Below are positions 7,114-10,019 of a stretch of 63,435 nt of DNA, one piece after another. The notes under the pieces were generated by a model. It saw only the letters and a program-made list of their open reading frames with translations. It searched no databases and was not told the origin of the DNA. The first letter of the stretch is position 1. Each line of letters begins with the position of its first letter. Source of the stretch: Deltaproteobacteria bacterium (GTDB taxonomy: Bacteria; Desulfobacterota; Desulfomonilia; Desulfomonilales; Desulfomonilaceae); assembly GCA_021777225.1 (NCBI GenBank), contig JAJYDQ010000013.1:1-63435 (forward strand). The letters are read 5' to 3'. The position numbers and the translations under genes were made by a program.

Positions 7114-7656
7114 ATGGCAAGGAAGCCTGCTAAAGCTCTTAACGTAGGTGATAAAATCCGGCAGATGCGAGAAAAACTAAAGCTGGATTTTGATCAATTG
7201 GCTGAAAAAACCGGCTACCATGTAGAATATTTGAAGGAGATAGAATCTGGGATTGTTGTACCACCAGTAGGGACATTAATTCAGGTTTCTCGAGCGCTGG
7301 CCGTAGATTCATCATCTCTCCTTTCCGAGGACAGAAAGGCAGAACGACGGAAGAATTATTTGAAGAGGACCAAGGCCTATTCGTACAAAAGCCTTACGCC
7401 GGACGCCCAGGATAAACATCTATGGGCGTATCTGGTGACGCTCGACCCTGAGAAAGATCACGAGATGGTAGCGTACAAACATGAAGGGGAGGAGTTCATG
7501 TTCGTGATCGACGGACATGTGGAGGTGAAGGTCGGAGAAGATATTCACGAACTGAAGAAAGGGAGTAACCTGCATTTTGATTCAGGGAAAGCCCATCATC
7601 TTCGAAATTTGAGCCGGAAGACGTCCAAACTCCTCGTAGTTGTTTTTACGCCATAA
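7114..7656 (+). CDS. XRE-family regulator with C-terminal cupin domain
   Basis: A 180-aa protein with an N-terminal lambda-repressor-like helix-turn-helix (KIRQMREKLKLDFDQLAEKTGYHVEYLKEIESG, about residues 12-45) and a C-terminal small beta-barrel cupin (HEGEEFMFVIDGHVEVKVGE, then GSNLHFDSGKAHHLRN). This HTH-cupin fusion is a common one-component regulator of metabolic genes, with the cupin as the likely ligand sensor. The SD is GGGAG. It sits between the acyl-CoA dehydrogenase and, after the small-RNA region, an SDR reductase, and is a natural candidate to control one or both. The ligand is unknown. Confidence 0.88.
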   Translation: MARKPAKALNVGDKIRQMREKLKLDFDQLAEKTGYHVEYLKEIESGIVVPPVGTLIQVSRALAVDSSSLLSEDRKAERRKNYLKRTKAYSYKSLTPDAQDKHLWAYLVTLDPEKDHEMVAYKHEGEEFMFVIDGHVEVKVGEDIHELKKGSNLHFDSGKAHHLRNLSRKTSKLLVVVFTP

Positions 7657-7714: not shown

Positions 7715-7731
7715 TTGGAACTTTTGTTGCA
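7715..7731 (+). promoter_or_regulatory. sigma-54 (RpoN) -24/-12 promoter
   Basis: The sequence TTGGAACTTTTGTTGCA matches the RpoN consensus TTGGCACN5TTGCA at all but one fixed position, with the diagnostic GG (7717-7718) and GC (7729-7730) exactly 10 bases apart. It lies in a gene-free stretch with A/T tracts upstream (7685-7710). Predicted transcription start is near 7742, directly upstream of the structured RNA. An enhancer-binding protein would be required; its binding site was not identified. Confidence 0.6.
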
Positions 7732-7741
7732 TGCCAATGTC

Positions 7742-7898
7742 GCAATCATTAGGGGTTATGTGAGAAGCTAAGCCGGTTCATCAAAAAGATCCGCATATTG
7801 TACAGCCCGTGCGGAGATGTTCCGAAGCTACTAACGACACGATAACCCATATCCATACCTCCTTTCACGCCCTGAGAACTTCTCAGGGCTTTTTTTTT
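7742..7898 (+). ncRNA. candidate structured small RNA with its own intrinsic terminator
   Basis: The interval between the sigma-54-like promoter and an intrinsic terminator folds by eye into nested helices. P1 is GGGTTAT 7753-7759 with ATAACCC 7842-7848, extended by GTG/CAC. P2 is CGG 7774-7776 with CCG 7822-7824 and CATC 7779-7782 with GATG 7816-7819, around a U-rich internal loop. P3 is TCCGCA 7790-7795 with TGCGGA 7810-7815. A single-stranded linker, CCTCCTTTCA (7858-7867), follows, then the terminator hairpin. No coding frame is convincing. It could be a trans-acting sRNA or a cis-acting leader/riboswitch for the SDR gene at 7970. It does not match the c-di-GMP, TPP, SAM, cobalamin or fluoride riboswitch consensus as I know them. 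Confidence 0.5.
7869..7898 (+). terminator. intrinsic terminator of the candidate small RNA
   Basis: A perfect 9-bp stem, GCCCTGAGA (7869-7877) with TCTCAGGGC (7881-7889), has a 3-base loop followed by nine T residues. It is oriented for plus-strand transcription, about 70 bases before the SDR start codon. Confidence 0.88.
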
Positions 7899-7969: not shown

Positions 7970-8722
7970 ATGAGACTTGCGGGAAGGGCGGCGGTTGTTA
8001 CTGGCAGCAGCAGGGGTGTTGGACGAAACATCGCTTTGGCTTATGCCAAAGAAGGAGCTGACGTTCTTGTAAATTATACTTCGAGCGAGGCGTCGGCCCT
8101 TGAAGTAGTGAACCGCATAAAGGGTCTAGGGCGCAAATCAGTTGCGGTAAAGGCGGATGTTGCGGTAAAGGCCGAAGTTGAAAATATGATGGCTACTGCC
8201 AAGAAGGAATTTGGTCGTCTGGACATAGTTGTAAACAACGCCGGGTTTACCAGACCGGCGATGTTGATGAAAATGACCGAGGAGCAATGGGACGCCGTGG
8301 TGGACGCGCATCTAAAAGGACCATTTCTGTGCGTACAGGCAGCCTCCACGTATTTTAAGGAACAGCAATATGGCAAGGTTATTAACGTGAGTTCCGTCGC
8401 TGGATTGGTGGGGACAGTCGGTCAAGTCAATTATTCGGCGGCTAAGGGAGGCGTCTTAAGTTTTACTAAAAGCGTGGCGAGAGAGTTGGCGCGTTACAAC
8501 GTTTGCGCAAATGTGATTTCTCTTGGAATTGTCGAAACAGACATGACGGAAAAAATCAGGAAGGATGAAAAGCTCAAGGAAATTTACATGAACCGGATAC
8601 TGATGAAACGATTTGGGACAGCGGATGACATCAGCCCTGCATTTGTTTTTTTAGCGTCGACGGAGTCGGATTATGTCACCGGACAGTTGTTATGTGTAGA
8701 CGGGGGTTATGGCATGATATAA
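7970..8722 (+). CDS. short-chain dehydrogenase/reductase, 3-oxoacyl-ACP reductase (FabG)-like
   Basis: A 250-aa NAD(P)-dependent oxidoreductase of the classical SDR family. It shows the Rossmann glycine motif TGSSRGVG near residue 13, NNAG near residue 85, the catalytic Ser in VINVSSVAG (about 137) and YSAAK (Tyr and Lys, about 152-156), and a C-terminal YVTGQLLCVDGGYGMI typical of FabG-like enzymes. The ATG at 7970 is chosen over an in-frame TTG at 7952 because AGGAGG sits 5 bases upstream of it. It lies downstream of an intrinsic terminator, so it has its own promoter or is expressed by terminator read-through. No other fatty-acid synthesis gene is adjacent, so the substrate may not be acyl-ACP. 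Confidence 0.9.
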   Translation: MRLAGRAAVVTGSSRGVGRNIALAYAKEGADVLVNYTSSEASALEVVNRIKGLGRKSVAVKADVAVKAEVENMMATAKKEFGRLDIVVNNAGFTRPAMLMKMTEEQWDAVVDAHLKGPFLCVQAASTYFKEQQYGKVINVSSVAGLVGTVGQVNYSAAKGGVLSFTKSVARELARYNVCANVISLGIVETDMTEKIRKDEKLKEIYMNRILMKRFGTADDISPAFVFLASTESDYVTGQLLCVDGGYGMI

Positions 8723-8946: not shown

Positions 8947-8975
8947 TTGACATTTGCTATCCGATTTGATACCAA
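8947..8975 (+). promoter_or_regulatory. proximal sigma-70-like promoter with perfect -35 box
   Basis: A perfect TTGACA (8947-8952) is followed after 17 bases by a poor -10 box TACCAA (8970-8975). The predicted start falls at about 8982, at the foot of the leader hairpin. The weak -10 suggests an activator, or that another hexamer is used. Confidence 0.35.
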
Positions 8976-8979
8976 AAAT

Positions 8980-9020
8980 ACATTCCGGAATATATCGGAT
9001 TCTTATCCGGGAATGTTTTT
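8980..9020 (+). promoter_or_regulatory. 5' leader hairpin followed by T-run (attenuator or stabilising stem)
   Basis: ACATTCC plus GGA (8980-8989) pairs with TCC plus GGAATGT (9006-9016), with one bulge and a 16-base loop, followed by five T residues. If transcription starts near 8982, the hairpin is 5'-terminal: it could protect the mRNA or act as an early attenuator. Confidence 0.4.
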
Positions 9021-9074
9021 ACGGGTCTCCCGAACGGTTTTTTGGGAGGAACTGTTGAAAGGAGGATTGAGGGT

Positions 9075-9566
9075 ATGGTTAAACGTTTGTTTCTTCTGAG
9101 CCTTTTGGTTCTCGCGCTGTGCGGCGCAAGCACGATTTCCTTTGCCGGCGGCCCCGCCGGAGGGTGCGCCTACATGCCGCCGCCACCGGGATTGCCACCG
9201 ATGTGTGGTCCTGCCGCCACTAATTATTCTCAGGTAACGGAAGTGATTACCCCTGTTCCTGCGCAGTTGCGCAAAGTCAGGGTGGTTGCTCCTTATCTAG
9301 CAGGAATTGCGTGGCCGCGCACACCTCTAGCATTCTACGGAAACCCACAGGCTTTTCCGAATCCTATCGCCCCTGGCCGCTATGAGTGGCTAGTGCCGGT
9401 AACCGACATTAAGGTCGAACATTTTGATACTTCTCTGGACAAATGCTGCAAGCCGGTTAAAGTTCCGCGCTGCGTATACGTGAAGGCTAACTATATCAAA
9501 ATGAAACCCGTTTGTGGTGTTCCGATGGCGCCTCCGCCTCCAATGCCTTGCAAGGTGAAAAAGTAG
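9075..9566 (+). CDS. secreted Pro/Cys-rich protein, unknown family (first of a tandem pair)
   Basis: A 163-aa protein with a clear Sec signal peptide (VKRLFLLSLLVLALCGA, cleavage near SFA-GG around residues 23-26). The mature part has a polyproline patch (YMPPPPGLPPMCGP), then a central region without recognised domain, and a Cys- and Pro-rich tail with CCKP, PRCVYVK, KPVCGV and PPPPMPCKVKK. I do not recognise the family. Start at 9075: GAAAGGAGG ends 9 bases before the ATG. This start region is almost identical to that of the next gene (GAAAGGAGGATT, then AGGGTATGGTTAAA), and both proteins share layout, pointing to tandem duplication with strong divergence. Envelope or extracellular location is inferred. 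Confidence 0.65.
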   Translation: MVKRLFLLSLLVLALCGASTISFAGGPAGGCAYMPPPPGLPPMCGPAATNYSQVTEVITPVPAQLRKVRVVAPYLAGIAWPRTPLAFYGNPQAFPNPIAPGRYEWLVPVTDIKVEHFDTSLDKCCKPVKVPRCVYVKANYIKMKPVCGVPMAPPPPMPCKVKK

Positions 9567-9638
9567 GCTTCGGTGTCCTTTAACATGACAACAGAGTTAC
9601 AAAGATATAATGAGTGTTTCGAAAGGAGGATTAAGGGT

Positions 9639-10019
9639 ATGGTTAAAAAGTTAGCGATTCTCGGTTTCATTCTGGTCGCCGTTGTATCGACGAGCGCAGT
9701 GTGGGCCGGGACAATTGCGGGCGCAGTCGCAGCGCCAGAGCCCATGGTAATGCCGGCTTCGGCTCCAGCATGCGGCGTGGGTGGATGTCCACCTCCTCCG
9801 GTTCCTAGAGTGGTTAACACCCCTTGTAATGTAGTGAAAACCCCTTGTAAACCGAAGAAGCTGACGACCGCCATCCAGGTGAAAATGCAGTATCCGGCCC
9901 CTCAGATGCCGGTATGCGCCCCCGTAAGCTGCGGCCCCCCCCCAATCCCTGTGGCCGTGCCAATGTGGAAGTTCATCGTGCCGTGGCCGCCGTTCGTATA
10001 CTACCTGCCGGTTGAATAA
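9639..10019 (+). CDS. secreted Pro/Cys-rich protein, unknown family (second of a tandem pair)
   Basis: A 126-aa protein with a signal peptide (VKKLAILGFILVAVVSTSAVWA, cleavage likely after VWA). The mature part is very rich in Pro, Ala and Val, with Cys in pairs (APACGVGGCPPPP, TPCNVVKTPCKPKK, MPVCAPVSCGPPPIP), and ends in an aromatic WKFIVPWPPFVYYLPVE that could form a terminal beta strand. It shares its translation-initiation region and overall composition with the upstream gene. A strong intrinsic terminator follows 30 bases after the stop, so the pair likely forms one transcript. Function unknown; a structural envelope or surface role is speculation. Confidence 0.62.
   Translation: MVKKLAILGFILVAVVSTSAVWAGTIAGAVAAPEPMVMPASAPACGVGGCPPPPVPRVVNTPCNVVKTPCKPKKLTTAIQVKMQYPAPQMPVCAPVSCGPPPIPVAVPMWKFIVPWPPFVYYLPVE

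What the first reader, a model, noticed from the sequence alone, without database searches (positions are those of the whole stretch)
7715..7898. Sigma-54-type promoter driving a compact, terminator-ended small RNA
The -24/-12 motif has the exact GG-N10-GC spacing and one mismatch to the RpoN consensus. It is followed, at the predicted start, by a nested set of helices (P1 7753-7759/7842-7848, P2 and P3 inside) and a 9-bp stem plus nine-T terminator. The 157-base unit has no coding frame. A free-standing sRNA under sigma-54 would link it to nitrogen, stress or motility-type regulation.
Basis: partly seen in the sequence, partly recalled or inferred. Interest (0 to 1): 0.72.

Follow-up and report, generated by a model that had tools for sequence, protein, structure and literature searches.

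The report
Envelope-stress-type small RNA in Desulfomonilaceae
The window holds a real, family-wide bacterial small RNA whose most conserved promoter parts fit an envelope-stress (RpoE-like) sigma factor rather than sigma-54, and whose frozen tail matches the translation start sites of two neighbouring genes for secreted proteins, so it most likely shuts those proteins off under stress.

Summary
In detail: a GG-N10-GC motif, a nested hairpin and a nine-T terminator are present, and the RNA is real. It occurs in 17 of 18 genomes of its family (Desulfomonilaceae) at one conserved locus and in none of the other Desulfobacterota searched. Its helices show compensatory changes (20 pairs changed on both sides, against 12.3 +/- 1.7 in shuffles).

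The sigma-54 reading is not the best one. The best-kept promoter parts are TGTC (17/17) and a GGAAC-type -35 (15/17; G010 reads GAAAC, G011 has one extra spacer base), spaced like an RpoE-type ECF promoter. The sigma-54 '-12' GC is lost in G008, G010, G011 and G016. Promoters of the same layout precede an RpoE-like ECF sigma gene (16/16) and a secreted-protein gene near it. The start is probably about A7751, not 7742.

The 3' tail (CCAUAUCCAUACCUCCUUUCA) is almost invariant. It pairs (-27.7 and -26.6 kcal/mol, best of 52 starts in the window) with the Shine-Dalgarno and start codon of two secreted-protein genes 1.2-1.7 kb downstream; the first of these sites is unchanged in 17/17 genomes.

Best reading: an ECF/RpoE-type stress sRNA repressing translation of secreted proteins, working like MicL or FoxI. 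Transcription, sigma dependence and repression are inferred, not shown.

The parts
7717..7721 (+). -35 element GGAAC (ECF/RpoE type); also the '-24' GG of the sigma-54-like motif
   Evidence: All five letters in 15/17 genomes at a fixed 25-nt span to TGTC; G010 reads GAAAC at that position and G011 has one extra spacer base.
7726..7731 (+). GTTGCA, the '-12' element of the sigma-54-like motif
   Evidence: TGCA kept in 13/17; lost in G008, G010, G011, G016.
7738..7741 (+). -10 element TGTC (ECF type)
   Evidence: Invariant in 17/17; GGAACTT-N15-GTC spacing.
7751..7898 (+). small RNA, about 148 nt, proposed start A7751
   Evidence: Conservation resumes at 7751 and runs to the T tract; covariance model finds all 17 family copies. 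Start inferred, not mapped.
7753..7848 (+). long hairpin P1/P2/P3
   Evidence: Fold and covariation: 20 of 40 pairs of the whole model (18 in the hairpin, 2 in the terminator) with changes on both sides.
7847..7867 (+). pairing region CCAUAUCCAUACCUCCUUUCA, contains anti-SD CCUCCUUU; 7849-7867 predicted unpaired
   Evidence: CCATATCCATACCTCCTTT identical in 17/17; the C and A after it each differ in a few copies. Unpaired probability 0.96-1.0 at 7849-7867; 7847-7848 lie in P1.
7869..7898 (+). intrinsic terminator
   Evidence: 9-bp stem here (8 bp in the family model, 100% paired in 17 sequences) and a T tract of 7 or more in 17/17.
7114..7656 (+). XRE/cupin regulator gene upstream, conserved neighbour
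   Evidence: Pfam HTH_3 and Cupin_2; synteny.
7970..8722 (+). FabG-like short-chain dehydrogenase gene, conserved downstream neighbour with its own probable promoter just after the terminator
   Evidence: Pfam adh_short_C2; extended -10-like TGNTA follows the T tract in most genomes.
9056..9078 (+). proposed target site 1: SD and start codon (ATG 9075) of a secreted-protein gene
   Evidence: GAAAGGAGGATTNAGGGTATGG unchanged in 17/17 genomes; duplex -27.7 kcal/mol.
9075..9566 (+). proposed target gene 1: 163-aa secreted Pro/Cys-rich protein, no Pfam or NCBIfam match
   Evidence: (on the longer frame); among 297 Desulfobacterota genomes only the two family members in the sample hit clearly.
9621..9642 (+). 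proposed target site 2: RBS of a second secreted-protein gene (ATG 9639)
   Evidence: Same RBS block, different flanks; duplex -26.6 kcal/mol.
9639..10019 (+). proposed target gene 2: 126-aa secreted protein

Best explanation
This is a trans-acting small RNA of an envelope-stress regulon. An RpoE-like ECF sigma factor (in this genome at G000:C100:54284-54940, with an anti-sigma-like gene beside it) transcribes it from GGAACTT-N15-GTC. The RNA folds into a long covarying hairpin followed by a mostly single-stranded tail and a terminator. The tail pairs at once with the Shine-Dalgarno (UGAAAGGAGG:CCUCCUUUCA) and the start codon (GGGUAUGG:CCAUAUCC) of the two secreted-protein genes 1.2-1.7 kb downstream and so blocks ribosome binding. 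Shown by computation: the conserved RNA, its structure, the promoter pattern, the similar pattern at the ECF gene, and the complementarity and conservation of the target site. Inferred: sigma identity, transcription, repression rather than activation, Hfq help, and the stress signal.
For: RNA in 17/18 family genomes, fixed synteny; covariation. Promoter: all 17 copies keep TGTC; 15/17 keep all of GGAAC at a 25-nt span, G010 has GAAAC there and G011 one extra base; the -12 GC is lost in G008, G010, G011, G016. Same layout upstream of a secreted-protein gene in G000, G004, G013 and (AGTC variant) G010, near the ECF gene where contigs allow, and at the 5' end of the ECF gene itself in 16/16 orthologues (GAAAC-N16-TGTC); the ECF's best NCBIfam match is RpoE, below its cut-off. 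RpoE elements (-35 GGAACTT) are quoted in PMC12153292. Target: RBS block identical in 17/17 save one position inside the predicted internal loop, and otherwise almost absent from the genomes; duplex energies -27.7 and -26.6 against a mean of -11.9 and a next best of -18.5 among 52 starts in the window; -24.9 to -27.7 for each genome's own pair. Nucleotides 7849-7867 of the tail are open in the fold. Hfq is encoded. Sigma-E sRNAs that repress abundant envelope proteins are known: MicL (PMC12137417), FoxI and FoxJ (PMC11005410).
Against: No transcript data. Both pairing partners hardly vary, so there are no compensatory changes to prove the duplex. Shuffled tails of the same composition reach the energy in 17 of 5000 cases, and part of the complementarity is ordinary SD/anti-SD; in 1.2 Mb of G010 about a dozen other windows, mostly not gene starts, score as well. 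The target RBS is partly paired in the folded leader. The whole target leader is conserved, so its RBS may be frozen for other reasons. The ECF-gene promoter lies in a stretch that may be translated. In the 1.2 Mb of G010 the strict motif is no commoner than its reversed control. An ECF orthologue was not found in G005 and G007 (about 82% complete). TGCA is kept in 13/17, which an ECF spacer would not require.
Confidence: 0.68

Rival explanations
1. Sigma-54-dependent sRNA, started near 7742 by an enhancer-binding protein.
For: GG-N10-GC and TTGCA in W; TGCA at the right place in 13/17 genomes; rpoN is present.
Against: -12 GC missing in G008, G010, G011 and G016 although the RNA and terminator are intact there; TGTC and GGAAC better kept; most of 7742-7750 poorly conserved; sister promoters lack the -12 GC.
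Confidence: 0.1
2. Overlapping promoters: ECF in all genomes and sigma-54 in addition in most, giving two inputs.
For: Both GGAAC/TGTC and TTGCA are more conserved than the flanks in 13/17 genomes.
Against: The shared GG makes part of the match automatic; no enhancer site was looked for or found.
Confidence: 0.2
3. Attenuator-type leader of the FabG-like gene rather than a free sRNA.
For: Upstream of that gene in the same orientation wherever the locus reaches it.
Against: Terminator kept in all 17; distance to the gene varies from 78 to 448 nt; promoter-like TGNTA follows the T tract in most genomes; no alternative antiterminator pairing was seen.
Confidence: 0.06
4. General anti-Shine-Dalgarno RNA acting on many mRNAs, or a decoy resembling the 16S 3' end.
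For: The tail holds ACCUCCUUU, an anti-SD word; many G010 windows pair at -25 to -34 kcal/mol.
Against: Conservation extends well beyond the anti-SD word and matches the start-codon part of the two neighbouring targets.
Confidence: 0.15
5. Small antisense-strand protein gene with SD AAAGGAGG and ATG.
For: SD and ATG spacing look good on the minus strand.
Against: Frame not conserved, 9 to 69 codons; covariation and a plus-strand terminator instead.
Confidence: 0.01

Closest known systems
Sigma-E-dependent envelope sRNAs of Enterobacteria (MicL, with MicA and RybB)
   Same: RpoE-type promoter; terminator-ended sRNA; proposed translation block of envelope/secreted proteins (MicL targets only lpp, PMC12137417).
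   Different: No sequence relationship tested or expected; different phylum; the tail covers both SD and start codon; targets lie beside the sRNA gene; sigma dependence not shown here.
FoxI/FoxJ of Fusobacterium nucleatum
   Same: Sigma-E sRNAs outside Proteobacteria with a C-rich seed that repress an abundant envelope protein (PMC11005410).
   Different: FomA porin target; some FoxJ targets are activated; no homology tested.
Sigma-54-dependent sRNAs (GlmY/GlmZ, Qrr)
   Same: -24/-12-like motif in 13/17 genomes.
   Different: -12 GC not conserved across the family.

Membership tests
ECF/RpoE-regulated sRNA | RpoE-type -35 GGAAC and -10 GTC at proper spacing | tested here: met
   All 17 keep TGTC; 15/17 have all of GGAAC at the 25-nt span, G010 has GAAAC, G011 one extra base.
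ECF/RpoE-regulated sRNA | RpoE-like ECF gene present | tested here: met
   Close orthologue in 16/18 genomes; none in G005 and G007; best NCBIfam match RpoE, below cut-off.
ECF/RpoE-regulated sRNA | expression depends on that sigma factor | not testable with these tools
   Needs an experiment.
Sigma-54 promoter | GG at -24 and GC at -12 kept in homologues | tested here: not met
   GC lost in G008, G010, G011, G016.
Trans-acting base-pairing sRNA | free-standing transcript with conserved terminator and structure | tested here: met
   (from sequence; transcript not observed).
Trans-acting base-pairing sRNA | conserved accessible seed complementary to a conserved target site | tested here: met
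   7849-7867 open, 7847-7848 in P1.
Trans-acting base-pairing sRNA | compensatory changes or experimental proof of the duplex | tested here: inconclusive
   Both sites hardly vary; 17 of 5000 shuffled tails do as well.
Any Rfam family | score above the gathering threshold | tested here: not met

The most novel reading that the evidence does not exclude
A family-specific envelope-stress circuit in which one ECF-driven RNA clamps both the SD and the start codon of two neighbouring secreted-protein genes whose ribosome-binding sites are frozen to match it, with an extra sigma-54 input to the same promoter in most genera.
Probability: 0.2. Interest if true: 0.75.

Novelty: new member of a known kind. 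Interest (0 to 1): 0.6.

Why it matters
It would place an RpoE-type sRNA arm in Desulfobacterota, with a promoter pattern, an sRNA and target sites that can be tested directly. It also shows that a single good-looking -24/-12 match can mislead, because the same bases can serve as an ECF -35 element.

Tried and rejected
Rfam match: none. Antisense small protein: frame not conserved. Extended single-block target: no 22-mer match with up to 3 mismatches other than the sRNA itself; the 14-mer search gave mostly scattered sites, and the recurrent one lies inside what looks like an MscS-like coding region (name from memory, not searched). Homologues outside the family: weak model hits share only a terminator, judged from the printed alignments and sequences. 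The genome-wide pattern search gave family members plus a Clostridiales and a Saccharibacteria record (L063, L065) that were not examined. A whole-genome target scan was not possible; 1.2 Mb of G010 was scanned. Leader of the FabG-like gene: considered less likely.

Full report
Observation. The motif, helices and terminator described are present. The unit folds better than all 200 shuffles (z -3.9) and has no Rfam match.

Distribution and structure. DNA search finds it in 17 of 18 genomes of the family and nothing convincing outside. A covariance model (R1) finds the same 17; in 395 Desulfobacterota genomes the further hits are weak and, on inspection, share only a terminator. Organism names of matching records are mostly Desulfomonile, Desulfomonilaceae or unclassified Deltaproteobacteria; that G010 is D. 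tiedjei DSM 6799 is my inference from its size. The order acyl-CoA dehydrogenase, XRE/cupin regulator, RNA, FabG-like gene recurs where the loci reach. On the model-fitted alignment 20 pairs have changes on both sides (shuffles 12.3 +/- 1.7) and the slid controls fall to 4-10. On the unfitted alignment the number of such pairs is 15 against 11.9 +/- 1.8 and slid versions reach up to 15, but double-changed cells are 40 against 20.2 +/- 3.8 (slid 11-26).

Promoter. Aligned on TGTC, TGTC is invariant in 17/17. GGAAC with all five letters at the same 25-nt span stands in 15/17; G010 reads GAAAC there, and in G011 the GGAAC is one base further off. The sigma-54 -12 GC is absent in G008, G010, G011 and G016, and TGCA is kept in 13/17. 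Most of 7742-7750 varies (except 7744), and conservation resumes at 7751. GGAACTT-N15-GTC is the layout of RpoE promoters (-35 GGAACTT in PMC12153292; the -10 word and spacing from my own knowledge). A pattern search found the layout upstream of a small secreted-protein gene in G000, G004 and G013, with an AGTC variant in G010. In G000, G013 and G010 that gene lies a few kb from an ECF sigma gene, and in G004 it is on another contig with matching gene order. The 18-genome count of the pattern is only modestly above its reversed control, so the argument rests on the recurrent orthologous sites, not on the count. G000 has only two matches to the ECF region-4 family. The ECF gene itself carries GAAAC-N16-TGTC in 16/16 orthologues, though this stretch may be translated. 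Its protein is RpoE-like. The genome also has rpoN, so an overlapping sigma-54 site remains possible.

Target. The tail CCATATCCATACCTCCTTT is identical in 17/17. The ribosome-binding site of the secreted-protein gene downstream of the FabG-like gene, GAAAGGAGGATTNAGGGTATGG, is unchanged in 17/17 genomes. A second gene beside it shares the block in the window's genus and G012, with one base missing in G010. The predicted duplex covers the SD with 10 bp and the start codon with 8 bp. In the window the two sites score -27.7 and -26.6 kcal/mol; the next of 52 starts scores -18.5. In 1.2 Mb of G010 they are among the best of 119,492 windows but not alone, and 17 of 5000 shuffled tails reach -27.7. 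In the folded RNA 7849-7867 is open, while 7847-7848 sit in P1. Hfq is encoded. The target protein is unknown to Pfam and NCBIfam; in 297 Desulfobacterota genomes only the two family members sampled hit clearly.

Mechanism. Most likely the RNA is made under an RpoE-like sigma factor and blocks translation of the two secreted proteins, as MicL does for Lpp (PMC12137417) and FoxI/FoxJ for FomA (PMC11005410). Everything about expression and effect is inferred. That the two proteins are secreted is read from their signal-peptide-like N-termini and was not tested with a predictor.

Limits. Several genomes are about 82% complete, so absences (G015 without the RNA; G005 and G007 without a close ECF orthologue) may be gaps. 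Both duplex partners hardly vary, so covariation cannot test the pairing.

Noticed in passing
L039 1501-1649 (G012:C190:7014-7162, minus strand): A second sRNA-like locus with CCATACC-TTTCACGCCC before a terminator, sharing part of the tail; sigma-70-like TATAAT upstream rather than GGAAC/TGTC.
   Followed up: partly
window 8947-9074: The whole leader of the secreted-protein gene is highly conserved and has two hairpins, the second with compensatory-looking changes; it may be a regulatory element in its own right.
   Followed up: partly
L089, L104, L091, L092: GGAAC/TGTC-type promoter before a small CxxC protein gene (...YAVTCRVFKGRWSIRHC...) in four genomes, another possible member of the same regulon.
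   Followed up: partly
L097, L101, L109: GGAACTTTTCCAGAGTTTAAGTGTC (a variant in G000) with conserved downstream GGGGTTAGGG in the window's genus; no gene assigned.
   Followed up: no
L063, L065: Clostridiales and Saccharibacteria records matching the tail-plus-terminator pattern; not read.
   Followed up: no
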